Assembly: GCF_000143535.2 (NCBI RefSeq)
Contig: NC_037310.1
Location: 1,488,001 to 1,552,000, forward strand
Reading direction: 5' to 3'
Source: Botrytis cinerea B05.10
Lineage: Eukaryota > Ascomycota > Leotiomycetes > Helotiales > Sclerotiniaceae
Length of the DNA stretch: 64,000 nt
A program made the translations under genes and the position numbers. Below, in pieces: positions 12,675-63,027 of the stretch. The notes under the pieces were generated by a model. It saw only the letters and a list, made by a program, of their open reading frames with translations, searched no databases and had not been told where the DNA came from. Position 1 is the first letter of the stretch. Each line of letters opens with the position of its first letter.

Positions 12675-13892
12675 ATGGCTCCCTCTGCAACAGAAGCCCA
12701 ATCAGCTCCAGTCGTTAACCTTAACAAAGGCAACGACAACACCAAGACAGATTCCACCAGTCAAGAAAAATGGGTGAAGAGCACTGGCGTTCTAGATCAA
12801 TTTGAGTCTTTTGATGTTACTCCCGTTATCGGCCGCGAATTTCCAGATGTCAATTTGGTAGAATGGCTTCAAGCTCCCAATGCCGATGAGCTCCTACGCG
12901 AGCTTGCTCTTACTAGTATGTCCTAATGAAACACAATACTATCACGAGTCTTTGTATGCTAACCATGACTTAGTATCTCAACGTGGCGTGGTATTCTTCC
13001 GCAAGCAAGATAATCTCACTGCCGATTTGCAAAAAGAACTTGTCCAACGCATTGGTCTCCTTTCAGGAAAACCATCAACTTCAGGCCTTCACATTCATCC
13101 ACTTCTCAACCCAGAGAGAGAAGGATATCGTGTAACAGATCCAGAAATTAGTACCATTGATTCGGTGCTCAACAAAAAACTTTACTTCAACACAAAATTT
13201 GACCGAGCAAACGGTCTCCAAAATACTTCCAAATGGCATGCGGATATCTCTTTCGAGCCAAAGCCTGCCGATTATTCAAGTTTGAAACTAGAGGTTCTCC
13301 CAAAAACGGGAGGCGACACATTGTGGGCAAGTGGATATGAAATCTACGACCGGATTTCAAAACCCTATCAAAAATTCCTCGAGAGTCTGACTGTGACATT
13401 CCAACAACCTGGCTTCATTGAAGCTGCTGCAAATGGTGGATTCGAATTGTACGATAAGCCAAGAGGAGCTCCAGAAAATGTGGGAAAGGAATTGAAAGCC
13501 GTGCATCCAGTAGTGAGAACTAACCCAGTTACTGGATGGAAATCTGTTTTCCCAGTTGGAGGCCATGTTAGCCATATCAATGATGTGACTCAATTGGAAA
13601 GTGAAGCACTCTTGGGTTGGTTCAAGCGATTGTTGGTGGACAATCATGATTTGCAGGTGCGATTCAAGTGGAAGAACCAGAACGATCTTGGTAAGTTTTT
13701 TTTGCAGTACCCTGTATGTTGTCTGTACTAACGATAAGTATAGCTATCTGGGACAACCGTTCAGTCTTCCATACGGCCACAGATGATCTCGAAGGACAGG
13801 GTGAAAGATATGGTGTCAGAGCTGTCAGCGTTGGAGAAAAGCCATTTTTCGACCCCGAGAGCCAGTCTAGAAGAGATGCCCTAGGCATCTGA
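12675..13892 (+). CDS. TauD/JLP1-type Fe(II)/2-oxoglutarate dioxygenase
   Basis: Exons 12675..12915, 12974..13690 and 13744..13892; 368 aa. The family oxidises sulfonates such as taurine, or sulfate esters, with 2-oxoglutarate and O2, releasing sulfite or sulfate. The metal triad is visible: H169-x-D171 in KWHADISF, and the distal His329 in RSVFHTATDD. Arg341/Arg345 in GERYGVRAV are candidates for 2-oxoglutarate carboxylate binding. QRGVVFFRKQ and LPKTGGDTLWASGYEIYD are further family blocks. The last exon is essential, since it supplies the distal His; stopping at the in-frame TAA after the second exon would remove it. Introns: ACTA|GTATGT..TTAG and CTTG|GTAAGT..ATAG, both phase 1. Probably cytosolic, as no signal peptide is seen. 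Related herbicide-type (TfdA-like) or other substrates are possible. The Dal5-type permease downstream on the same strand could supply its substrate. Confidence 0.92.
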
Positions 13893-27390: not shown

Positions 27391-28334
27391 CCTGCTTCAC
27401 TCTCCGAAGAGGGCAAAAGCAACCCAGGAAAGTTCTCGAAAACGGTACCTTTTACGGCTGACAACCCAAGAGACAAATTTTGATCACGAACCGAGAGATA
27501 TCACGAACCCGTTTTTAAACGCAACTAAAATCAGAAAGGCGGCTCTAGTATTTCAGGTTCAAATGATCCATTGCTGTTTCCCAATGAGAATACCAAGGGA
27601 TCAGTTCAATCATGACTTCCAAGCGTACCAAAACTCCAAACGAACCAGATATGCAGAGAGCACAGATTCAGAGGCCGTTCTACGAGCTCAATCAAAGCAA
27701 AAGATACAAAGAAGCAAGATAAGAGAAAAGGGGTGAAGGCATGATTGTCAGGCATGTGAAGCGATATCTCATCTTGACTTCAGGAATTGGGATATCACAT
27801 AGTGCACCGCAATGAATTTTCAGAACAATGAACTTGATGGATATAAATGATGATGGAGTCAAACTGTAGCAGGCATTTCATTTTCATGTGTGTGGTTGCC
27901 GCACAGTCAGTGTGGACATTGAGGTGATAATGGTGAGAGGATGGCGGCTTTCGTGTGTAGGAGTATTTTCAGGAACGAATTTGATGATTACACAGTTCCT
28001 AATGTGATAAAATATAAGACCTTTACTTTTCTTGACAAACATGTAAGATCCACCATCATCATACTCATACTTAATCTTACTCGAATGGGGTGTAGCCCAA
28101 CTCTTTGTTGGCAGTTCAAGACCTAAAATTTCATCTAAAGTCTTGTTAAATATCACCAGAACGTTTCTGCCCAAGGCGGTGAAACACCATAATCCCTATC
28201 GATCAAGACGATGTTCGCAACAACATGTAGAGAATGAACGAACACTATGATCAATTGACAACATAAAGGAGCGAGATACCATAGTATGGATCGAAGTAAA
28301 TCACCACTCAGATGCCCCCAAAACAATATCGCTC
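27391..28334. other. Intergenic region, possible small minus-strand frame
   Basis: 0.94 kb between the repeat protein stop and the first FPGS gene. An open frame at 27402-27736 (+) lacks family features. A minus-strand frame at 28174-27884 is weakly protein-like but has no supported start. The last ~150 bp should be the FPGS promoter. Confidence 0.4.
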
Positions 28335-29969
28335 ATGTTTCTCCGTGCACTTCGGAATGTAGCAGCTGAACCTTGCCTACGCAATCGCAGTCTCCAACTT
28401 CACATTCGATTCTCAAGCAGTATGGCCTCCAAAGGTCGTAGCTATCAGGATGCAATCGCACTTCTGGATACCTTACAGTCTAATCGCACAATTGTATCCT
28501 CCATATCGAGTACCTCGAAAGATATGAACCTGTATGCTATACCAGAAATGCTCGAATGGACGCGCAAAGCGGGGTACGAGACTAAGGACTTCTCAAGTCG
28601 CGGACTAAAATGTATACACGTAGCTGGGACAAAAGGGAAGGGAAGTGTATGCGCTATGATAGATAATATTCTGCGACAGTATCGCAGCGAAGAAAGTGAC
28701 ATCGGAGTTATGCCAGGGGGTACTGAAAGAAAAGCTCTGGGCAAGATTGGGCTATATACCTCACCACACCTAATGTCAGTACGTGAACGAATACGAATAG
28801 ATGGCCTTCCCATATCTGAACCCCTATTTGCGCGGTATTTCTTCGAGCTTTGGGATCGGTTCTCTGACGCCGCTTCCGCATCTGCTACCCCGCATCCGAA
28901 TCCTACGTCCCCTGAGACCAAGCCAGGGTATTTTCGATATCTCACAATCATGGCATTACATACATTCATGGAGGAAGGGGTAGAGACAGCTATCATGGAA
29001 TGCGGTATTGGAGGGGAATATGATAGCACCAATATACTGCCTGCGGAAGCAGTAACTGCCACCGCGATCACGAAACTCGGCATCGATCACGTTGGTATGC
29101 TAGGAAACACAATTGACAAGATAGCTTGGCACAAAGCTGGCATTATGAAGCAAGGTATCCCATCTTTTACAGTTCCCCAACTTCAGGAAGCCCAATCCGT
29201 TCTAGAAAGCCGTGCGAAGGAGAAGAATGTCAAATTAGAGGTTGTGAATCGATGTGCAGGGTTCGATGATGGAACTATTACATTGGGCGCCGAAGGAGAG
29301 TTTCAAAGAGACAATGCGAGTCTGGCAATGGCCGTTTCGGCTTCTCACTTGCAAAATCTATGTATTGAAGGCGTGCCTACTCCTCCTGCAATACTATCTC
29401 TCCAACAACCGATTCCAGATAAATTTCTAGAAGGACTGAAGACAATTAAATGGGCTGGTAGATGTGAAGTTGTGGTCACTGGCAATATTACATGGCTCAT
29501 TGATGGTGCCCACACGGTTGACAGTATCAAGGAGACTGGGATTTGGTACGCTTCAAAACTGGTTCAAGCTAGCGCGGAGGGAGCCCTCCCAGCAAAAACC
29601 ATGTTGATATTCAATCAACAAGACCGCGATCCAGACCCTCTCATTCGAACATTACTTGCGAGTATTGGCATTTATTTCAAAGCGTTCACGTTTGCTGCGT
29701 TTTGTACCAATACCCCTTTTAAGAGCGAGGCAAGTGAAAAAGAGATCAACGATCTCACCCAACAGAAATTAGCATCCAAACTATATTCAAGTTTGGATCG
29801 TAATCCAATGTGTGTGGAATATGCGAGTATTGAAGAAGCTGTAGAGCTTGCGCGTAGGGCATCCGAAGATGAAGATAGATTTTTCGTCCTGGTGACTGGA
29901 AGCTTGCATCTCGTCGGTGGTCTTATGAAGGTTCTTGAACATCAGAGCAAGAAAGAGCGGAAAATCTAG
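28335..29969 (+). CDS. Folylpolyglutamate synthase, intronless paralog
   Basis: Single exon, 544 aa. FPGS adds glutamates to folates by ATP-dependent ligation, retaining them in cytosol and mitochondria and making them good cofactors for methionine, purine and thymidylate synthesis. Mur-ligase features: P-loop HVAGTKGKGSV (residues ~95-105), YTSPHLMSVRERIRIDG (the folate-binding SPH..RERI block), MECGIGGEYDSTN, IDHVGMLGNTIDKIAWHKAGI, and WLIDGAHTVDS. Two candidate starts: M1 precedes an Arg-rich, acid-poor segment that looks like a mitochondrial presequence, and M30 (in SSSMASKGR) would give a cytosolic form. The gene lies tail to tail with a second, intron-containing FPGS. Dihydrofolate synthase (FOL3-like) is less likely given length and leader. 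Confidence 0.92.
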   Translation: MFLRALRNVAAEPCLRNRSLQLHIRFSSSMASKGRSYQDAIALLDTLQSNRTIVSSISSTSKDMNLYAIPEMLEWTRKAGYETKDFSSRGLKCIHVAGTKGKGSVCAMIDNILRQYRSEESDIGVMPGGTERKALGKIGLYTSPHLMSVRERIRIDGLPISEPLFARYFFELWDRFSDAASASATPHPNPTSPETKPGYFRYLTIMALHTFMEEGVETAIMECGIGGEYDSTNILPAEAVTATAITKLGIDHVGMLGNTIDKIAWHKAGIMKQGIPSFTVPQLQEAQSVLESRAKEKNVKLEVVNRCAGFDDGTITLGAEGEFQRDNASLAMAVSASHLQNLCIEGVPTPPAILSLQQPIPDKFLEGLKTIKWAGRCEVVVTGNITWLIDGAHTVDSIKETGIWYASKLVQASAEGALPAKTMLIFNQQDRDPDPLIRTLLASIGIYFKAFTFAAFCTNTPFKSEASEKEINDLTQQKLASKLYSSLDRNPMCVEYASIEEAVELARRASEDEDRFFVLVTGSLHLVGGLMKVLEHQSKKERKI

Positions 29970-30391: not shown

Positions 30392-32150
30392 TTACAGTGC
30401 ATCCACCGATTCCAAACTTCCCAGCGCTCTACCAACCAAATGCACACTTCCCGTAATCAGAGCTTGAGCATGGACTTCATCCGTGGCCAAACCTCGCACG
30501 TACTCAAACGCATCTTCCACGCTTGGAAGAACTTGTACATCGGTTTCAAGGTTGGAATCAAGCGAGCGCCATTTTTCAGCAAAGGCTTTCTGCATCGTGA
30601 GCTCGGATATTGACTTAGGATCGTAGGAAAGGTTGACGAAGTCTAATGGGGTCAGTGATGAACTTGATTATGCGAGTAGTGAATAATTACCTTTCTTGGA
30701 TGCGTTTTCTTTCTGGATAGATGTTGTGCAAAACACTACGTGGTCAAATTTTACAGATCCTTGGATTGCGCTATGAAGTCCTTCAAGTAATCCAATTGCT
30801 TCGCGATGACCTTGTTGATTGAAAATCAGAACTCGTGGGCCGTTCCTAGAAAAGGTCAGTTACATGAACTCAGTCAAGGTATAAAACTTACTTTTTTGCT
30901 ACTTCGTCACCAAACCATTTTGCTGCGACTATGATACTATCTGCAGTATGTGCGCCATCTAAGTACCAGGTAACATTTCCATCAACCTTTGTTTCGCATC
31001 TTCCACGCCAAACTACTTGCTCCAAAGCTTCTACGAATTCTTGGGGTAGAGAATTCGAGGATGTATTAAATTTGGAGTCCAGTTTGTTCAAAACTGTTTC
31101 AGCTAGACGGATGGCAAGACTCGCGTTTCCCCTCTGAAAATCTGCAGCCGGTTTTATTTTCACCGTCGTCAGTCTTGGGTCTAAACCGACTACTTTGAAA
31201 GACTTCACCCCCTTTTCTACAGCCCTCTTCTCTACAACTTCCATCGCTTCTGGCTTTTGATTCACTGTAAATGATGGCACTTCTGCCTTCTGAATTCCAG
31301 CTTTATGCCATGCGATTTTATCAATCGTGTCTCCTAGTGTAAACACATGATCGATCCCTAACGATGATATACCCGTCACCGCAGGTCGATCCACAATATT
31401 TGTTGAATCGTATTCACCTCCAACACCAACTTCATAGATCGCAGCATCAACACCTTCTTGGAGAAAAACGTGGTAAGACATCAAATTCAGGTATCTGAAA
31501 TAGACAGGCTTCTCAAATGGTTCGCTCGAGGATGTCGCAGCTGCTTCCAGACGATCCCAAACTTCGAAGAAGTATTTTGCAAACATAGGAGCTGATATGG
31601 GTGCTGAATTGATTCGGATCCTTTCCCGGACAGCGATGAGATGGGGTGATGTGAAAAGTCCAACCTTTTGAGGAAGATCATGTGACTTTCTATAACGATT
31701 CAAGATAGAGTCAACATAGGCGCACGTAGAGCCTTTTCCTTTGGTACCGGCAACATGGACAATATTCAATCGTTCGAGATCATCTTGCTGGACGTGAGTT
31801 AGCGACAGCAAAATAGGAAGGGAGATTGAAAAGTACGGTATATCCAATTCGAGTCAGATGCTGTCTCATTTCCCGATTGGCTCCTTCATCGAGCTTGATC
31901 CCAGCCTCCCATCGTTTCTTGAGAACTTCGTATGGTGTTTGAAGCGTATTCAAGGCATTGATAGCATCCTAATTGATGGTGAGAAAAGAAATCATGTGTG
32001 TAGCAATGTTGTGACAAAACGAACATCGTAGGTCCTTTCTCCCATTGTGGCAATAAATCTTCGCGAATCTGGAGCGCGTTTATTGAAGCGCGGATTTATA
32101 GAAGCGTTTCTGAGGGATCGGAGAGATGATCTAGAGAAAGAAGTCCACAT
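30392..32150 (-). CDS. MET7: Folylpolyglutamate synthase, five-exon paralog
   Basis: Complement exons 32150..32025, 31968..31837, 31787..30892, 30845..30691 and 30642..30392; 519 aa, comparable to yeast Met7 (548 aa). Features: DDAINALNTLQTP and RIGYT-QDDLERLNIVHVAGTKGKGST (the P-loop begins at residue 100), TSPHLIAVRERIRINSAPIS, YEVGVGGEYDSTN, SLGIDHVFTLGDTIDKIAWHKAGI, and WYLDGAHTADS. The N-terminal 35 residues (RSSLRSLRNASINPRFNKR) form a likely mitochondrial presequence, with an internal Met36 in FIATMGERTY for a cytosolic form. Of the two copies, this one looks closer to the standard fungal FPGS. Exon joins were set by homology to the intronless copy and by splice consensus; the donor of intron 1 (GAT|GTTCGT) is non-standard and is the weakest join. 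Confidence 0.92.
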
Positions 32151-36754: not shown

Positions 36755-38872
36755 CTATCTTCGTCGTGGTTGCACAGAAATAGAAGTTGGAATGCCATCG
36801 AAATGGTGGGAAGCCTGCCAAGGGCTTTTACTTGGCTCTTCAGATGCTCGAATTCTGCCTTGGGAATACCAAGTGTTGGTATAACCTTTAGGACTCAAGA
36901 GACTCCAGAGATGCCTAAACTGCTCTTCGTTCTTGGCAGACTGTCTCTCGTCAACAGTTATTCGATTAACTGTGCCGTGGCTTGGCTCGACAGTTCCGAC
37001 CTCTTCGCAATATTCTGGGATGACAATTGCATTGTCGGACTTATCGCCAGACCGACGACCCAAACGACCGCTTTCTCTACTCTCTCTACTGGAAACTTGT
37101 TCAGCCCGAAGCCCGCCTTGAGGATGTGCGACGATGCTCCAGAAGATAGACTGTCTTCCTTGGACTGCATTTTTATGATTGTGAGGTTGCACGGTAGACG
37201 CAGCGAGTAAGCGCACATCCCGTTCTTGCGATGTCTTAGTCTTTTCAACGATCATGTTATTGGCAATCGTGTTGAAATTGGTTCCAAAGTTCAAATTTAG
37301 CCCATCACTTTCTCGGACACCACTAACGTCAACTTTGAGCCCATTTCCTCGCTTTTCAGGCTGGGAATGTTGTGCAAACTTGAGTTGTACTTCCGACCCA
37401 AGACATTCTCCAGGCCGATATTGTCGCTTCGATGGTCTGACATCAAGTACTCCTTCCTCAAGCAGAGATTCCTTTCTCTTCTTTGGTAGGGAAGTAGGCA
37501 GCATTTGTGACGCATTTGGGTATCTGAACTGATTTTCGTGGACTTGATAGTCGAAATTACTGGCTCTCATAGCTTGTTCCTTACGACTGCCAGCATCAGA
37601 TCTCTCATATTGTCTTTGTCTCATGGGTTCGCCAGTATATTTGCTTGATTGAACCCAAGGATTTGGTTCAAAACCCATGTACATGTTTCTCGAATGGGCA
37701 TTATTACTGTATGGTTGCATGGATGCCAGCATAGAACCCTTATCTTGCGTCATCGGCCGAGTGTCAAAGGCCTCATACTCCGAGAGTTTTGTTCTCGAAT
37801 TAGGTCCGCCTATTTCTGCCTTGTAGGATACTGGGCGTTCACCAGAGTTTCTGTCCGCATTGCCGTGATTTTGTTGGAAACCCATCTGCCACCCGGCGTT
37901 CTTAAAATTGCCATCAGCCAGGTTTAATTTCTTAGGGTTGACACCATTTTCAACCTGCACCTGGGATTGAGGAAGATCAATGATGTGGTCAGAATACTCG
38001 AATGAATCAACTATCAAGTCGCATCCAGTCTGAAACTCAAAGTCATTTTCGATTTCATTACCCATCGGATAGTCGTCGTCGTCGTCGTCGTCGTCTACAA
38101 TTGCCTCGTTGGCATCTGCATCGACAGCTTCCTCGTCACCGTCACCATCACTCGCGCTTTCTATGTATCCATTAGCCGGATTTAAAGATGATCCTGGATG
38201 TTCAATCGAGTTTCCTTCGATAGTTTTGCCTGTCTCAAGACTAATCAGGCCGCTTGCTAGCTTTTGTAGGTACTCGTCCGTCTTTCCTGTTTCATTATAT
38301 GCTGCCCACATCTTGTTCGCATACTTGTTTGAGGATGGCATCGAGCTTTTCCAGGCTTTCCAATCTTGGAATACTTGCCCACCAGCCTTCCACGCCCTCC
38401 GTTTTTTTTGTCTGTTCTTTTCTTCAACATAATTTTTAATGTTTGCCGGGCTTGTTTTATTCAGCATCGCCAGGAGCATCCTATCACCTGTCCATAGACG
38501 TCCGTCTCTCTTCTCAAGGACCCTATCGATCCTATTTTTCGCGGTTTGAATGCGACGTGTAGATCGCGGCTTTCCAGCCGCCTTCTTTCTGAGCTCCTGC
38601 ATATGTCTGCATTTATAAATTAGCTACTGCCATCGATTTTTTGAACATAATAAAAAACAAGGCAAGTCTAACCGTCCTACAATCTGCGCGTCAACACCAT
38701 TGGTCATTATCCGCCGATTTTTTGGCGATGGTCCTTTCGTACAAGCTTTCGTGTCAAGCTCGCTATTGCATATTTCTGCAATCTCTCCGCTTTTCAAAGG
38801 TAGGATTCCATCGACATTGTAATTTTTGTAATAATTGTCGAGCCAATCTGCGTGTTTCTCAGATTTGGGCAT
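36755..38872 (-). CDS. Divergent homeodomain-like protein A (tandem paralog)
   Basis: Complement exons 38872..38673 and 38606..36755 (phase 2 intron); 683 aa. Not recognised by name. It is a clear paralog of the gene at 40259-42737: both start MPK, share GVD[AS]QIVGRH around the intron, a basic RKKAAGKPR-type patch, a homeodomain-like segment (about residues 79-137), and SSNKY[AS]xKMWxAY after it. Its recognition-helix region reads SPANIKNYVEEKNRQKKRR, so the usual W-F-x-N is Y-V-E-E. An acidic stretch (eight Asp from a GTC/GAC repeat, nt 38075-38098) follows near residues 240-255, and the rest is polar and probably disordered. By analogy to fungal homeodomain proteins a nuclear DNA-binding or dimerising role is possible, but the helix changes make sequence-specific binding doubtful. 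Confidence 0.8.
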
Positions 38873-40258
38873 TTTGACTATAATCTTAGCACTTGGTAGC
38901 TATTTAAGATTTTATTTTGGCCGAGAGGTATTCTGAAAGACGATTTAGATGATCAGCAGATGTGCAGCTGGTTGATGTTGATGAAGCCTAGTCCTTCGTC
39001 CAAAGTCAGATCTGATTATCCCCGAATTAGTTTGTTGAAGGATGAAAGTTACTTGCCTTCTACTATTCTTGTGGGATTTTCTACTTGAGATTCCGCCCAA
39101 CCAATATTTCGTGGAAAGTGGTTGTGTGCGTGGGCAAATTATTGAACGCGATAGAATTTATTGAACTCGATAGAATTTATTGAACTCGATAGAATTTATT
39201 GAGCGCGGTAGAATTTATTAATCGTTGTAGATCCTACTTATCTCAGTGAATTTGTTTGTAGAATCCCTGAGCCGACTTTCTACTATCTCGAATTGGTGCA
39301 AAAAAGGTCTCGAATAAGGCCGTGGTTATAGTTAATCAAAATGCAGGGATCAAATCTTTGAAGCTGATTAGATTTGTTCGGGAGTTAGTGGTAAGATAGT
39401 GGGGTGTATTGAAATCATTGATCTTCATCTCGCTTATCTTTTGTCTAACGCCTCGTTCTTATCAAAATTGGTTGCCTAGGTAAATCCAGATCACATCCCT
39501 GTTCGTAACAGGATGCGACCTCGAAATTTCGATCACTTAAAAATACAGGCACAAAGCCGCGGACCAAAATTATTGCAGCGATTTCAAGTTTGGAAGTCTA
39601 AGTTGGAGCATTAAGATGGAGGTTCAAAGGGTTTCAAATTTGGTCAATACGAAAGAATGAGTTCCTCCTTGTTCTTGAGTGTAAGCCCAAACTACCCTTA
39701 TCATCTACGAGACAGGACTGACTACGAGCTTCGCATTGATAGTTTTCCCTTCACAGTCGATTCTACGACTATCAATACCGGTTTCCAGGTGTCTTCCACA
39801 GACTTATCTCCATTTTTACAATTCTCGTCTACCGAACACAGTCAAGCTAGTCTTCAAAGAAGTCGGAAGTTATTACACTTCTGGTGATGTTTTTCTGAGG
39901 GCCAGGCACATACAAATACAATTACAATATACATTTATACACACAATTGAAAGTCGGGGTTGAATAGATAACACATTTGATGGGATTTGTTATAATTCTG
40001 AACAAAATACTTTTATGATTTTTGATTTATGTAGATTTTTTAAGTACATCGCAGATAGATCATGGAAAATTCTACAGGATCCGTGGTCTTCTTCATGCTA
40101 TAACAGCTTCATTCAAACAGACAATGTGCGCCGGGTATCTTCAAATCTGGTCCAAGCCTCGAAACAGTGCAATCCTTTCCTCCGTGTATCATATATCCAA
40201 CATTATACGGGGTTCCCATCTTTTTCTAGTGATTACCGCCAGGTCCGCCTTTCTGGAA
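38873..40258. other. Intergenic region between homeodomain-like paralogs
   Basis: 1.39 kb. Includes the promoter of paralog A and the 3' flank of paralog B. Contains a 19-bp tandem repeat at 39138-39220. I looked for a third decayed paralog here and saw no shared motif. Confidence 0.5.
39138..39220. repeat. 19-bp tandem repeat, about four copies
   Basis: Unit tagaatttattgaactcga at 39152-39170 and 39171-39189 is identical; 39190-39208 differs at its 3' end (gagcgcgg), with partial copies on each side. Lies about 270 bp upstream of the paralog A start codon, so it may affect that promoter. Confidence 0.92.
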
Positions 40259-42737
40259 TCAATTGTTATCGAGATTGGGTGTATCCCAATGCTCGAAAAG
40301 GCTTTCGTTGCCCAGGAAGGCCGAGTAATCGAACTCTCCGTTTTGCAGAAAAGATTGCTCTAGGGCATTCATGTCTGGCACAGGAAGCAGGTTTTCGAAG
40401 TTTTCGGCATCCTGTGTATTCAATGCATTCTCTGGCACTGAAGGTATTTCAGCCGACAACTCAAGCTCCTGAGTTCCTCCTTGTAGGAATGCAGAATCCT
40501 GTTGTAGTTGAGGGTCTTGAGCTGTCGAGTCAGCTTCCCAATCTCCATCTAAGATGCTGACAGGATATTCAAAGGCAGGACTTGGAGTTCTTGCAGGGGC
40601 GGTCGTATTGCCTTGTTGTGTCACTCGCTCTGTGATGTTCTCCGTGACATACTGTCCTACATTTTCTGCACCGATTGTTGGGGTAGATGTTGGAAAGCCC
40701 TCAAGTAGTTGTCCAGAAACTTCTTCTGTGCCACTGTTGAGACCGTCTTGTTCGTATCCGAAGAGGAGAGGGTCAAGAGGTTGTGGTTCGACATCCGAGC
40801 CTCGGACATCAAGAGTTCGGATATTGGGAGTTCGGATATTAGGAGACTTTAATTTTGAAAGGTCAGTAATTGTCGATCAGGAAACATTCACAAAGGAAAT
40901 TTGTACTCAGAAATAGATAAAGAAGTGAGAGGATACAGGAGGATGAAAGGGATGTGATAGTATCATTTAGAAGAACTAATAAAACTTACTGTCATTCCCA
41001 ATTCAGCTGTGTTCTCCTCATAAGGACTACCATGGCAGATATTCAACTTTGAGGGCTCAGGAGGAGACCATCTCGCGCCACTGTTATCGAAAGATGAATT
41101 CATGGCGTCTTCAGTCGAACTCCAGGAACTCCTTCGAATTTCGGACTGGCCAGGCATTGGTCGACGACGGGTCTTTAGAGTTGGTCTCATAGCCCTCAGT
41201 CTCTTGGCTGGCCTTCTTGTATCAGCCATCCTACTTTCAGCTCCAGCAAAGTTTCCTGTTGCAGATGGAGCAAAAAGTCTAGAACCGGAGGCTTGACGAG
41301 GTCGCTTTCTCAAATGGGCGGCATATGGGCCCTGGTTAAGCTCGTCGTCATCAAGAGTCGACTTCCTCTTTCGGGCAGGATCATTAGATTGGGCAACATG
41401 CCCATTAAATGGTTGTTGCCCCATCGGAATCCCTGAAGCTTGCGGTAATACTGGCATATACTGCATAGCATGACCTTGTGCCGCCGGAGGATAAAATGAC
41501 ACATGTCTTCTCTGCCAATCTTCCTCATACTCCTCTTCATTGTCATCCTGATTTGCGAATGGATCGCATGGAATGACAGACTGGGAGCTTACAGGCATGC
41601 CGTATCTGTGCTGGTATGGCAAAGTTTGCTGAATGCCATCGAATAAGGCCGGTGCTACATCATGAGAGATGGTGTCGGCGGTGTATGCCCCTGGATAAGC
41701 TTCCTGTTGAGGCGCTGGTTGAACTCTACTCACTTCGTAGCTTCGCCCAGCTGCGTAACTACTGATGCCCGAGTTCGCAGACTGGGTTGGTGGCATGGTA
41801 TACACCACGTTTTGCTCCCGAGTATACATGGGAATCTGCTGGGGCCCATGTTGTTTTTGTTGAGGCGCCTGGTAATGTGGTGGTGCCTGCAGATTTGAGT
41901 TTTCGGGTTGAGCCTGCTGGTTTACTTCGATATATGGTGCTGCAGGCTGCGTATCAGGAGATCCGGGCTGCCCATACTGGTACATCTGACTTTGTGGTGG
42001 TGGTTGTAAATTAGAGAAGCCACCTTCACCATTTTGATAACCAGATTGATTATCGAGATTGGGAACAACAGTCGTACCAGGTGCCAAGGCTACTAGACCA
42101 TTATTTCCGTTGATAGAATTAGCGGGCCCATTCGCAGGTGCATTAGGCAAGCCGGGTGCTGCTTGACCAATAACGGCACCAGTCACAGGATCGATCTCGC
42201 CGTTCAACAACTTCTGAACATAGCCAAGTGGATTTGCAAAATATGCCTTCCACATCTTGGTTGAATATTTATTGCTGCTGGATGTTGGACCGACAGGACC
42301 TCCGCCTGATTTCTTTAGCATCTTTGCCTTTTGTTCGAACCAATTCTTGATCTGCCTATAGCTCATTCCGGTTTGATACATCAATTTCATTCTTTCTCCT
42401 GGGGATGGATAATGATCGACTGCGTAGGCGGCTTGGAGGATTGCTAACTGCCACTGTTGGATGCGCTCTGCTCGAGGTTGGTTACGAGCGCGTCTTCGGC
42501 ATTCGCTGATATGTCTGTGTTTATGTTAGCTTCGTGACTAATCATAAGAATAAGAGTTCACTCATACCTTCCGACAATCTGCGAATCGACACCATCAACA
42601 CCTGAAGTTGTAGGTGGGATGTGTGCTGCATTGCATCTAATCGCAGTCTGTTTTGTTGTCTCCGTCAAGATGTCAGGATTGAGGAGACTGTTGAAGTAGT
42701 TGTTGAGAAAAGTGATGTGTTGGTTGTCTTTAGGCAT
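40259..42737 (-). CDS. Divergent homeodomain-like protein B (tandem paralog)
   Basis: Complement exons 42737..42568, 42514..40990 and 40846..40259; 760 aa. The homeodomain (about residues 69-125) is recognisable: WQLAILQAAYAVDHYPSPGER, then MSYRQIKNWFEQKAKMLKK, with the diagnostic W115-F116 of helix 3. The next positions are E-Q-K-A where Q-N-R-R is usual, so the almost invariant Asn51 is Gln118. The N-terminal GVDSQIVGRH and SSNKYSTKMWKAY blocks are shared with paralog A, as is the phase 2 intron within the Arg codon of GR. The middle is Gln/Pro/Asn-rich; the third exon ends in an acidic, aromatic stretch (FLQNGEFDYSAFLGNESLF), reminiscent of activation domains. The third exon is supported by an open frame of 196 codons and GTAAGT..AAAG splice sites (phase 0). 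Probable transcription regulator; targets unknown. Confidence 0.82.
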
Positions 42738-47557: not shown

Positions 47558-50208
<2,651 letters not shown>

Positions 50209-52784: not shown

Positions 52785-53928
52785 AATGTCGTGCTTTTTG
52801 TCAACAATGACACAAGTGAAAGTAATCGGCAGGGGTTGTCCACACTATCCGATTACCGAGCAGATGATTTGAGGATCGACTTTTCGATATGAGGGAAATT
52901 GATCTTGGTCAAGTTTAGCATCAGACGCTTCCTAGTAGTGAAGACTCAATGCGTGAGTGAACATCGAAAGATCGATGCAATGAAGGACGCAGGTTTATCT
53001 TAAATAGAAATTAAAAACACCGAATCAGTTAAAATTTGTAACATTAAGTAAAAGCGAGTAAAAAATAGTAAAAAAAGAGTATAAAATTTGCCACCATAAA
53101 ATCTCACCCCCAAAACCCTCAATTGACAATTCGATACACACAGGACCCGAGATTCAGGAACCAAAGAGGAATAAAGAACCTTCTCTTGCATCGCAGCCTC
53201 ATAAACCTCTACCTCTTTCAGTAAAGTCTCGAAAGTGGTTCACCAAACAAAACAAGCATAAAAAATCGATAAGACCTCAATCCTTACTAGCGTCTATCAC
53301 GCCATATCAAATTCTCAAAATAAGGCAAAATGAGGCAACCAGGCCTTCCTCAAGCCTCCGCGACAGCACTTACTGCTCAGTGCCCACGGAGTTATGGCAC
53401 GGCAATGCGGTAATGAAAGAATGATTACTTGCCTTTGCCTGGAAAAGTGCAAAAAGTCCGTCTTTGTAAGAATAATGAAATGTCGTGCTTTGTGTGATGG
53501 TCCACTTTTCTTTTGTAATTGTCGATGGGAGAGATGTACCAAGAGAGTATATACCAGCACTCGAATCATCTTTCCTACTTTACTTCCTCTTCCCCTTCTT
53601 TTGCATTGTGTGATCATACTCTCTACTTTATATAATATACACAACATACCATTATCCCGCATCATATCTCTTCATCGTATTCTCTTGCAACGTGTGAGAC
53701 TAGATCGGATCACACCATCGAGAAGATAATTGTGCCATTTATTACTGCTGGACTTTTGATATCACTTTCCTCTTTCAGCTTTCAACCTGTTGTCAACTTT
53801 ATACCTTTTACTCTTTTCTCTTAAACAAAAGCAATAACTTAAGAAAAAGTTTGTTTGCCTGTATTTGACTTGCTATCACAATTCAATAAAAAGTTTTCTT
53901 CCTTCGCTCAACCGAAACATACATCAAC

Positions 53929-54855
53929 ATGGGACACCACCGCGAATCATCTGCCTCGAATCACGAGTCGGGATATGCTTCTGGAGCATCTTCTCAAGGC
54001 TCTCTTCCCCAAATCGTCCTCACAAAGCCTCACCTCAAGTTCATCAATGCATCACTCAACAACCTTCAACCCATAGACATTCTCCGATGGGCCAAAATAA
54101 CCTTTCCAAACCTCTACCAAACCACTGCTTTTGGAGTAACAGGTCTTGTCACACTTGACATGTTAAGTAAGCTTCAAAAGGAAACACCAGAGCTACCAAG
54201 CGTCGATGCTATCTTCCTTGACACCTTGTATCACTTCAACGAAACACTTGAATTGGTTGAGAAGACCAAGACTAAATACCCAAACGTAAACTTGCATGTT
54301 TATAAGCCAGAAGGTTGCCAAAATGTTGGAGAGTTCGAGGGAAAGCATGGTAAAGAGCTATGGAAGACCAACGCCGATTTGTATGATTGGGTTGCCAAGG
54401 TCGAACCCGCTCAACGAGCATACAGTGAGTTAGATGTTGCTGCAGTCTTGACTGGCAGAAGAAGAAGTCAAGGTGCAAAGAGAGAGAGCTTGGACATCGT
54501 CGAGGTGGACGAAGCTGGCTTGATTAAGATCAACCCTTTGGCAGGATGGAGCTTCAAGGAGGTACAAAACTATATCAAGGAGAATGATGTCCCATACAAC
54601 GACTTGTTGGATCGTGGATACAAGAGTGTTGGAGATTGGCACTCAACTGAGCCAGTAAAGGAAGGGGAGGACGAACGTGCTGGAAGATGGAAGGGCACTG
54701 AGAAGACCGAGTGCGGAATTCACAACAAACGATCGAAGTATGCACAATACCTGTACGAAATGGAACAAAAGAAACAACAAGAGGAACTTTCCGCAGCATT
54801 GGAAAAGGTCCAGGTTAGGGAAGGGAAGATTGAAAACATTACTGTCGGGGTTTAA
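53929..54855 (+). CDS. MET16: Phosphoadenosine phosphosulfate (PAPS) reductase
   Basis: Single exon, 308 aa. PAPS reductase reduces PAPS to sulfite and PAP with thioredoxin, the step between sulfate activation and sulfite reductase in assimilation. The PP-loop fold is seen as ILRWAKITFPNLYQTTAFG followed by VTGLVTLDMLSKL; FLDTLYHFNETLELV and the ADLYDWVAKVEPAQRA segment are family-typical, as is VLTGRRRSQG. The catalytic motif ECGIH is present with Cys262 near the C-terminus. A Lys/Glu/Gln-rich tail of about 40 residues follows. N-terminal residues 1-28 are Ser/His-rich and variable. Probably cytosolic. The 5' leader is pyrimidine-rich. Methionine/cysteine repression is expected for this family but is not proven from the promoter here. 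Confidence 0.96.
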   Translation: MGHHRESSASNHESGYASGASSQGSLPQIVLTKPHLKFINASLNNLQPIDILRWAKITFPNLYQTTAFGVTGLVTLDMLSKLQKETPELPSVDAIFLDTLYHFNETLELVEKTKTKYPNVNLHVYKPEGCQNVGEFEGKHGKELWKTNADLYDWVAKVEPAQRAYSELDVAAVLTGRRRSQGAKRESLDIVEVDEAGLIKINPLAGWSFKEVQNYIKENDVPYNDLLDRGYKSVGDWHSTEPVKEGEDERAGRWKGTEKTECGIHNKRSKYAQYLYEMEQKKQQEELSAALEKVQVREGKIENITVGV

Positions 54856-59441: not shown

Positions 59442-62400
59442 ATGAAAATCAATATTACCGCTAGACTTGCGTCCAGCGCGTTTCTGCTTGCGTTGGTCCC
59501 TGCAGCTCGAGCTCTGCCACAATGGCTTCAGCCACACCTTCGTAATGCCAATGCAGATGCGTTTGCCCCTCGGGATTATACAATCTATGAGAGAGCAGAG
59601 GGTATTCAAGATCGCTATACACCATATGGATATGGGCCTCAGCCTACATATACCATAAACCCAGTCACAAGCGCTGACCCCGAGGAAACTTCATCATCCA
59701 GTACTAAAATTGGTTAGTTCATCCATCTTCTTTCTCAATCTTGGTCAATCGCATGCTAATTGAACTAGGATCTGTAACGGTCTCTGTCTCTGGTTCTTCT
59801 GTCAGCGGTATACTTTTCACTGGTACTTCTCCTGTTAGTCTATCTACTGGCCCAGGATCGGTTGAGCCTTCTGTTGTTACTTCTTCCACTGTTGCATACT
59901 CTACAATCACCATTTCAGTTTCTGCTACAGAAGGTTCTTCCACGGATTCGGCTTCAGCTTCGACTTCGAACTATGATCCAGAAACGTCGGCTTCAGCAAC
60001 AGGGACCATATCGTCGGAAACTAATGGAATATCACCAACAATACCTGGAGCAACAGATACTACATCTTCAGATTTCAATGGAAGCCCACCAACAACATCT
60101 GGAGCACCAGGCACTACTACTCCTTCAGAGTCTAATGGTAGTTCGCCAATAACATCGGCAGGTACATATGAACCATCTGGTATCATTTCATCGGACTATT
60201 CCTCTACCACTCCAAGTACAACCACTACTAATCATTGCAATCATGACAACTGTCTCCGTGAATTCATTCGGTCTTCTTCCATTGTTGGCCCGTTTTGTGC
60301 TACATATACTTTGTCAGAAAATACTGCCACTGCAGATCTTCCAACATATGTTTCACAATGCCATGATTCACCTTCAAGGATCTCATCTGCATGTTCGTGT
60401 TTGAATACTGGTGCCGCAACTACTCCAGGAAACGTCGGTAGCAGTACATCTTCGGCCCAGGCAGGGCCGGAAAGCACACCCCCAATAAGTGGTGCACCGA
60501 TTTCTTCTGGAGCGGAAAGTTCTTCGTATTCATCACCTGCCGGTCCAGAATCTTCTGCTAGCCAAAGTTCTTCTGTCACTAGTTCTGGAAGTTTAGGCTC
60601 TACGGTGACTGACACTCAGACCTACACCGTCACCCCTACCATCACTATACCTTCCGGAAGCCAGACGACTCAACCATCAGGAAGTGCATCAAGTAGCGAG
60701 TCAACAACCACTTCACCGGGAGCTGATACGACAACAACTCCAAGTGCAATAGGAAGTGAGACAACCGCTGCCCCATCTGGTGGCGAGACAACAACTTCTC
60801 CTTCTGCCGGTACAACTACATCTTCTGGAGATATAACCCCAAGTGAAAGCTCAAGTAATCCCAGCTATACTTCAGGAGCATCGGCCACCGAGCCTATATC
60901 TTCTGCGTCTGCAAGCTATACCAGCTCACCTTTCACGTCTGGAAATCCTTCGACTCCTGTCAGTCCAATTAGCTCATCAACATACGTTTCAGCTAGTTCG
61001 TCATCTGCAGGGCCATACACAAACACTTCAGCTTCAGCAACCGGTCCTGTAACTTCCGGAATCTCATCATTCAATCCATCTGGCAGTGTCTCGGCACCTG
61101 GAAGTTCAAATGGCGGTAGTGCTCCTTATACAAATTCGACATCGGAATCGTCTTCAACAACTACAATCGTTTCTTCAGGGACTGCACCATTCACTTACCC
61201 TTATCAGACTGGAAGTGGTCTTTCTAGTGGAAGTATCTCTGGCGGCATTTCAAGCTCGAGTGCATCGGCACCTTTGTACACAAATTCGACCGCTGTAGCC
61301 AGCCCAACTTATCTCGGTACTGCGCCATTATCTTCCGGCTCATCGGAAAGCGGAGTTTTGTCGACAGGAGCTTCATCATATACTCCTCTATACCCACTGA
61401 ACTCGACATCCACCTCAAGTGGAGTTGTTGGGCCCACAGGATCAGGTATATCGGGTGGTATTAGCTCTAGCTCGTCTGCCAGTGCTCCTTACCCAACGGG
61501 TAATAATGCTTCAACTACTGCTGGTCCAACTGGCACAGGATCTATGCCGACATCCTCTTTATTAGGAACTGGTACCTCGGGGTCTTCTGTCTCTGGTATC
61601 ATTAGCTCCTCCGCTGGATCCGCTCCATACTATCCTTATGGAAATAGTACTTCATGCACAAATGGCCCAACTGGATCCGGAGCAGGAACAGGTAGTCCAA
61701 GCTCTGTGTCAGGAGGTGTCCAATCAAGTACTGGTTTTTCAAGCTCAGGGAGCTACCCATCTTCTTCTAATGTGTCAGGTGGAATCAGTTCGTCGCTTCC
61801 ATCCTCTGCTCCATATCCAATCTCCAACAGTACATCAACGGCGGGACCAACCAATCCAGGTACCTCGGTATCTAATGGTTTCACTTCTGTTACTTCTGCA
61901 CCACTTGGCACTGTAAGCTCACCATCATCAAGCGTCTCAGGTGGTATTAGTTCTTCACCAGCATCTTCCCAACCATACCAACCTTATCCCTATGGAAATT
62001 ATACCCTTCCACCACTAGGGACAGGCACAGGAGGTGCAGCTACATCCACACCTTTCGGGTCCGGAAGTCCACCATCAAGCACCGGTACAGCACCTCTAGG
62101 GACAGGGAGCTCAAGCACTGATTCCGGATCATCTTCATCAGTTCCATACCCAACTCCTTCGAATGGAACTTTGACTAGTGGACCAACTGGGCCATTGGGA
62201 ACCTCACCAATATCCAGCAGTGATTCTGGTCAATCTTCATCGGCTCCATACCCAACTTCAGGAAACAGCACATTGACTAGTGGACCAACTGGAACTACAT
62301 CTGTCTTGAGAACTGGTACAGCGCCTTTGGGAACAGGAAGTTCGAATACTGATTCTGGCTCGTCATCATCAGTTCCATATCCAGCCTCTTCAAACGGAAC

Positions 62401-63027
62401 CCTAACTACTGGACCAATTGGACCATCAGGAACTTTACCAGTCTCAAGCTCATATCAATCATCTGTCTCTGGTAGCCCTACCAGTATTGGTAATGCAACT
62501 TCAGTGAATCCAACCTCATCTGCCAGTACTTACGATCCTGATGGATCTACTTCCAGTCAAGGATCCGTAGGAACCTCGTTGTCATCGTATTCGGCAACAG
62601 GTTCATTTAATACCAGCACTGGAGCTTCCCCTACTACATCCTCGTCCTCAGGTAAACTAAAATAAATGAAAACCTAAATGTTTTGAAGTTTTGCTAACAT
62701 TATTTTCAAGGTGGCTCTGGTACGTCGATCACGTCGGCAACTTTGACACCATCCACATTTGCAACATCGGTTTCGACTGGGACATATGCTGGCACCAATT
62801 CTTCTTCCATCGTCTCGTCTGTGTTGACTTCTGACTTTGGTTCCTCAATCTCATCCACGGATTCTTCAAGTGCTGCACCTTCTACAAATTCTCCCACTCC
62901 GACCACTTCGTATTCTCCACCACCAACTTATGCTCCGCCACCTCCACCAAATTATTATGGCTGGGGATCATGGGGCAGAAAGCATCAGAATAGGGATTCT
63001 GGTAGTGTTCGTCGTTGGTTCTGGTAA
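59442..63027 (+). CDS. Large secreted Ser/Thr/Gly/Pro-rich protein, probable cell-wall or adhesin type
   Basis: Exons 59442..59712, 59769..62651 and 62711..63027, phase 1 introns; 1156 aa. The N-terminus (KINITARLASSAFLLALVPA) is a signal peptide, with likely cleavage after ARA. Most of the protein is Ser/Thr-rich and should be heavily O-glycosylated. One folded-looking island at residues ~246-305 has six or more Cys: HCNHDNCLREF, FCATYT, SQCHD and SACSCL, a pattern seen in many fungal extracellular Ser/Thr-rich proteins. Downstream, units with GGISSS..APYP..NST..GPTG recur, and a longer repeat (APLGTGSS..TDSGSSSSVPYP) occurs twice at nt 62091-62400. The C-terminus is unusual: a Pro-rich run (PPPTYAPPPPPNYYGWGSWG) then a basic, aromatic end, SGSVRRWFW, with no GPI-anchor hydrophobic tail. 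Function unknown; surface adhesion or wall structure is an inference. Confidence 0.85.
62085..62440 (+). repeat. Imperfect coding tandem repeat in secreted protein
   Basis: Two long copies beginning at LGTGSS with T/STDSGSSSSVPYP followed by SNGTLT[ST]GP[TI]GP, separated by a related unit (SSDSGQSSSAPYP..NSTLTSGPTG). Typical of wall proteins whose length varies among strains. Confidence 0.75.

What the first reader, a model, noticed from the sequence alone, without database searches (positions are those of the whole stretch)
36755..42737. Tandem pair of divergent homeodomain-like genes in an AT-rich island
Two adjacent same-strand genes share MPK starts, GVD[AS]QIVGRH, a basic patch, a homeodomain-like segment and an SSNKY-x-x-KMW-x-AY motif, yet differ widely elsewhere. 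They sit between two gene-poor AT-rich tracts (34.5-36.7 and 42.7-45.7 kb). A conserved motif pair flanking a decaying homeodomain suggests a lineage-specific regulator family.
Basis: partly seen in the sequence, partly recalled or inferred. Interest (0 to 1): 0.75.

Follow-up and report, generated by a model that had tools for sequence, protein, structure and literature searches.

The report
Paired cryptic double-homeodomain genes in grey mould
Two neighbouring genes of the grey-mould fungus and its relatives encode fast-changing, probable gene-regulating proteins that seem to be built from two homeodomain-like units, both without the amino acid that homeodomains normally use to read DNA.

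Summary
The observation largely holds. The window is Botrytis cinerea, and 36755-42737 carries two intact, spliced, same-strand paralogues: A (760 aa) and B (683 aa). They share an intron at the same codon and phase, and 34% identity over ~225 residues (E=5e-22). The pair is old: A and B form 100%-supported groups, each spanning Botrytis and Sclerotinia/Stromatinia, and 14 of 19 A rows have a B row beside them. All named hits are Sclerotiniaceae genera. Gene A is most likely the known, uncharacterised BcHOX5; I found no paper on B. The 'AT-rich island' is only a mild G+C dip.

New here: (1) GVDxQIVGRH opens helix 3 of an N-terminal three-helix domain. It resembles a homeodomain with a long helix 2-3 loop and is very well conserved, so a double homeodomain is likely (predicted, moderate confidence). 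(2) A's recognisable homeodomain keeps the fold but has lost DNA-contact Asn51 (Gln in 17 of 18 rows, His in 1). B also lost Trp48, and Pfam finds no homeodomain in it.

Best reading: a Sclerotiniaceae regulator pair. A has an acidic, activator-like tail, clearest in Botrytis; B has none and may be a partner or competitor. Function is inferred, not shown.

The parts
40259..42737 (-). Gene A (probable BcHOX5), 3 exons: 42737..42568, 42514..40990, 40846..40259; 760 aa
   Evidence: spliced translation; 759-aa B. cinerea protein and 18 further rows; Pfam homeodomain
36755..38872 (-). Gene B, 2 exons: 38872..38673, 38606..36755; 683 aa, no Pfam match
   Evidence: spliced translation; 99% identical 682-aa B. 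cinerea protein and 20 further rows; Pfam none
42487..42725 (-). A: N-terminal three-helix, homeodomain-like domain (residues ~5-66; helices 5-17, 28-38, 52-66), interrupted by the intron in codon 57; holds GVDSQIVGRH
   Evidence: AlphaFold2 block pLDDT 82-95; core residues kept in 34 complete rows; two-unit matches to tandem homeodomains
42307..42465 (-). A: canonical-length homeodomain (residues 74-126), Asn51 replaced by Gln, Arg53 by Ala
42199..42279 (-). A: SSNKY..KMWKAY two-helix element (residues 136-162)
   Evidence: helices 141-150 and 152-160, block pLDDT 94-95; conserved in A and B
41362..41373 (-). A: RKRK basic motif, putative nuclear localisation signal
   Evidence: KRK after residue 250 in 18 of 18 A rows and 17 of 19 B rows; nuclear role inferred
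40262..40396 (-). A: last 45 residues, acidic and hydrophobic, activation-domain-like (9 acidic, 0 basic)
   Evidence: less clear in the Sclerotinia and Stromatinia rows
38579..38860 (-). B: N-terminal homeodomain-like domain (residues 5-76; helices 5-18, 28-38, 62-76; 23-residue loop), interrupted by the intron in codon 67; holds GVDAQIVGRH
38396..38557 (-). B: diverged homeodomain-fold segment (residues 84-137), no Trp48 or Asn51
38252..38335 (-). B: SSNKY..KMWAAY two-helix element (residues 158-185)
   Evidence: helices 163-174, 176-185; alignment

Best explanation
Genes A and B are an ancient tandem duplicate pair of nuclear regulators restricted, as far as the searches reach, to Sclerotiniaceae. 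Each protein has a folded N-terminal ~165-185 residues: a cryptic homeodomain-like domain with a long helix 2-3 loop, a second domain with the homeodomain fold, and a short KMW helical pair. A long disordered tail follows. DNA or partner recognition probably rests mainly on the conserved N-terminal domain and the basic stretch after it. The second homeodomain has lost the standard Asn51 base contact and probably serves as a weak or backbone DNA contact, or as a protein-interaction module. A carries an acidic tail and would activate transcription; B lacks it and would act as partner or competitor at shared sites. Shown: gene structure, homology, adjacency, conservation, residue losses. Predicted: folds. 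Inferred: nuclear role, DNA binding, activation and competition.
Confidence: 0.5

Rival explanations
1. Ordinary fast-evolving homeodomain transcription factor (BcHOX5) with a diverged tandem copy. The canonical homeodomain binds DNA in the usual way despite Gln51, and the N-terminal domain is only a dimerisation or accessory element.
For: Pfam homeodomain over cut-off; fold very close to engrailed; basic arm before helix 1; Trp48 kept in 18 of 18 and Phe49 in 17 of 18 A rows.
Against: Asn51 and Arg53 are absent in 18 of 18 A rows. Asn51 is described as very highly conserved and its mutation as abolishing DNA binding (PMC2725295, passages). The N-terminal domain is conserved about as well as the homeodomain or better.
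Confidence: 0.25
2. HOPX-like co-regulators: neither protein binds DNA; they act only by binding and titrating other transcription factors.
For: Loss of the DNA-contact residues with the fold kept in A. HOPX is a precedent of a homeodomain fold without DNA binding that acts on SRF (PMC9179269, passages).
Against: The N-terminal domain keeps Arg or Lys at the position of Arg53 in 34 of 34 complete rows, followed by a basic stretch; A has an activation-like tail.
Confidence: 0.15
3. Self/non-self or mating-type-like homeodomain pair, analogous to basidiomycete HD1/HD2 (analogy recalled).
For: Two linked, divergent homeodomain-type genes.
Against: Same-strand tandem; no third copy found. Little difference from one other B. 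cinerea protein each: 1 of 175 N-terminal residues in A and 1 of 200 in B; only one database row per gene was compared. Each gene follows the genus split. MAT1-1 and MAT1-2 genes are described elsewhere (PMC5821092, start of abstract); their position relative to this window was not checked.
Confidence: 0.03
4. Decaying pseudogene pair.
For: Rapid divergence and no ESTs for BcHOX5.
Against: Predicted proteins of 599-759 aa in 18 A rows and 18 B rows across several genera, with shared core residues.
Confidence: 0.03

Closest known systems
BcHOX5 of Botrytis cinerea (BC1G_12223, 757 aa; orthologue SS1G_04303)
   Same: Very probably gene A itself: a homeodomain gene of 757 aa (353 aa in the T4 model) whose only homologue found in 2012 was in S. 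sclerotiorum (PMC3485016, section 5 read). Gene A is 760 aa with a matching taxonomic range.
   Different: Identity inferred from length, domain and range; the accession sequence could not be compared. The section and passages seen mention neither the N-terminal domain, the Asn51 loss nor gene B.
HNF-class homeodomains (HMBOX1/HOT1, HNF1A)
   Different: His instead of Trp48 and Glu instead of Asn51; no room for an upstream POU-like domain; sequence match not significant; rows tied with other homeodomains. Likely resemblance rather than descent.
HOPX (vertebrate homeodomain-only protein)
   Same: Homeodomain fold that has lost key DNA-contact residues (PMC9179269, passages).
   Different: HOPX is a single small domain; A and B have a second domain and long tails; DNA binding here is untested.
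Double-homeodomain proteins (DUX4) and POU proteins
   Same: Two helix-turn-helix units in tandem; among the top Foldseek rows for A and B.
   Different: Rows that span both units have rmsd 8-17 and no row reaches E 0.001, so the relative arrangement is not comparable; no sequence kinship shown for the first unit.

Membership tests
Homeodomain (second domain of A) | Three-helix homeodomain fold, Pfam PF00046 over cut-off | tested here: met
Homeodomain (second domain of A) | Core L16, F/Y20, W48, F49 | tested here: met
   L16 18/18, Y20 18/18, W48 18/18, F49 17/18
Homeodomain (second domain of A) | DNA-contact Asn51 | tested here: not met
   Q 17/18, H 1/18; 4 of 4 other homeodomain exons found in this genome have Asn
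Homeodomain (counterpart in B) | Pfam PF00046 and core W48 | tested here: not met
HNF-class homeodomain (first domain) | Homeodomain fold with insertion between helices 2 and 3 | tested here: inconclusive
HNF-class homeodomain (first domain) | W48 and N51 in helix 3 | tested here: not met
   H at 48 and E at 51 in 34 of 34 complete rows, in the register that I set by hand from L16/F20/A35/V45; D at 51 in the partial Monilinia row
HNF-class homeodomain (first domain) | POU-like domain upstream of the homeodomain | tested here: not met
   the domain starts at residue ~5 of the protein
BcHOX5 | Sequence identity to XM_001548942 | not testable with these tools
   accession not held; length, domain and range agree

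The most novel reading that the evidence does not exclude
In one fungal family a homeodomain regulator was rebuilt: recognition moved to a cryptic N-terminal homeodomain-like domain with its own conserved chemistry (His at 48, Glu at 51, plus H7 and C35 that could bind a metal). The canonical homeodomain became a fold-only module, and a tandem copy without the acidic tail became its built-in partner or antagonist. This would be a new class of double-homeodomain transcription factor with a non-Asn51 recognition mode.
Probability: 0.22. Interest if true: 0.7.

Novelty: new variant of a known kind. Interest (0 to 1): 0.45.

Why it matters
Asn51 is described as one of the very highly conserved homeodomain residues. 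A whole clade of intact, fast-evolving fungal homeodomain proteins without it, joined to a second, well conserved homeodomain-like unit, gives a natural system for testing how homeodomains lose or shift DNA recognition. The pair also offers specific, uncharacterised candidate regulators of Sclerotiniaceae for functional study.

Tried and rejected
Further paralogues in the genome: exon-wise searches with three pieces found only A and B as credible matches. Two weak extra places (L008, E=0.08; L009, E=0.36) lie in frames that do not look related: a low-complexity frame and what I read, without a family search, as a prolyl-tRNA synthetase. The search with B's first exon did not even find A's first exon, so diverged copies of that exon would be missed. 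BcHOX4 was considered for B and rejected: B has no homeodomain match and is 683, not 495 aa.

Wider family: the profile search with A1 returned only 19 A-type rows, because just the best word-sharing candidates were scored; it says little about distant kin. Internal duplication (first domain copied from the homeodomain): hhalign probability 0.2%, unsupported. B's homeodomain-like profile against PDB sequences: nothing credible. AT-rich/RIP island: rejected on composition. Transposon-derived paired-type DNA-binding domain: thought of, not tested beyond Pfam. Papers: searches for Bchox5, for four gene numbers, for homeobox with Leotiomycetes, Sclerotiniaceae or Monilinia, and for Bchox4 with apothecia gave nothing on the function of A or B in the listings and passages seen. 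dN/dS could not be run: no orthologue DNA was available. Relatedness of rows was not corrected for in the residue counts.

Full report
What was checked. The window is positions 1488001-1552000 of contig 1 of a 42.63 Mb, 18-contig genome. Over aligned residues its proteins here are 98.7% (A, 749 of 759) and 99.0% (B, 675 of 682) identical to database proteins named as Botrytis cinerea. The two genes at 36755-42737 are intact and spliced: gene A has three exons and 760 codons, gene B two exons and 683 codons. The first intron of both lies in the Arg codon before the His of GRH, in phase 2. BLASTP gives 34% identity over 225 residues, E=5e-22. The 'AT-rich island' is not: the flanks are 39-40% G+C in a 43.5% window, with no RIP-like dinucleotide bias (thresholds recalled).

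Family and age. The search with A residues 1-200 gave 19 of 771 candidates and the search with all of B gave 21 of 7700 candidates. A profile of 37 rows gave only 19 A-type rows of 7993 scored. Every named source is Botrytis/Botryotinia, Sclerotinia, Stromatinia, Ciborinia or Monilinia; the four species looked up are Sclerotiniaceae, the other genera go by name. For the other 5 no partner can be read off the tables. In a tree of 37 rows A and B are each one side of a 100/100 branch, and inside each, Sclerotinia/Stromatinia and Botrytis separate (midpoint root). The duplication therefore most likely predates that split. B was found in Ciborinia and Monilinia; A was not, which may be a limit of the search. 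No third copy was found in this genome, though diverged copies of the first exon would be missed.

Rate. Over aligned positions, window A is 43% identical to Sclerotinia nivalis (288 of 667). Window B is 37% identical to S. trifoliorum (233 of 625) and 44% to Stromatinia (294 of 662). The average for B. cinerea against S. sclerotiorum proteins is 83% (PMC3158057, abstract passage). The species differ and no neighbour gene was measured, so this is a rough yardstick. Predicted proteins nevertheless stay long across genera with a shared core, so the pair is probably under selection. dN/dS could not be computed.

Anatomy. AlphaFold2 models from 37 and 32 rows show a folded N-terminal 160-185 residues and disorder beyond. 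In A the helices are 5-17, 28-38, 52-66 (first domain), 77-89, 95-105, 109-125 (second domain) and 141-150, 152-160 (KMW element). B has the same order, with a 23-residue instead of a 13-residue loop before helix 3, and one more helix (144-155) before the KMW element. Block pLDDT is mostly 82-95 in A (76 and 59 between the second domain and the KMW element) and 57-90 in B.

Tails. KRK occurs after residue 250 in 18 of 18 A rows and 17 of 19 B rows (a stricter pattern with a preceding K, R or G gave 18 of 18 and 12 of 19). The last 45 residues of A are acidic in the 14 Botrytis/Botryotinia rows (8-11 acidic, 0-1 basic) and less clearly so in the 4 Sclerotinia and Stromatinia rows (6-10 acidic, 1-5 basic). 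B's end is not acidic.

What is known. B. cinerea has nine listed homeobox genes. BcHOX5 (757 aa) had no homologue found outside S. sclerotiorum, no ESTs and no significant change in sunflower infection (PMC3485016, section 5 and passages). Gene A fits it; the identity is inferred. A search for 'Bchox5' finds only that paper, and a search with four gene numbers finds only that paper. Transcriptome work on apothecia names Bchox4, Bchox6 and Bchox8, not Bchox5, in the passages seen (PMC5821092). B's rows carry no functional name, and I found no paper on gene B, though its own locus tag was unknown to me and could not be searched. Asn51 is described as very highly conserved and its mutation as abolishing DNA binding (PMC2725295, passages). 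HOPX is a precedent for a homeodomain fold that does not bind DNA (PMC9179269, passages).

Verdict. A taxonomically restricted, fast-evolving, regulator-like pair: a new variant of a known kind. The most interesting parts are the loss of Asn51 in all rows seen and the well conserved cryptic first domain. Function remains inference.

Noticed in passing
window 39139-39219: Tandem array of 4.3 copies of a 19-bp unit (93% matches) in the A-B spacer, about 270 bp upstream of the start of gene B.
   Followed up: no
gene A codons 7, 35, 58 (and 62); gene B codons 7, 35, 68: H7, C35 and H58 are in 34 of 34 complete A and B rows; A also has C62 in 18 of 18. Possible metal site or polar core in the first domain.
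   Followed up: partly
P0036 and P0037: Database models of gene B in Sclerotinia nivalis and S. trifoliorum lack most of the first domain: different first exon, modelling error or real loss.
   Followed up: partly
window 28251-29969 (+) and 30888-31853 (-): Two adjacent tail-to-tail frames that share a VAGTKGKGS motif and look like paralogous folylpolyglutamate-synthase-type ligases. Pfam gives Mur_ligase_M for the first; the second frame alone gave no match.
   Followed up: partly
window 48763-50208, 53890-54855 and 12862-13731: A sulfatase, a PAPS reductase and a TauD-type dioxygenase frame lie in one window; possibly sulfur metabolism.
   Followed up: no
window 59708-62665: 985-aa Ser/Thr/Gly-rich open frame with imperfect 57-bp repeats (60021-60156), no Pfam match; looks like a surface or wall protein.
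   Followed up: no
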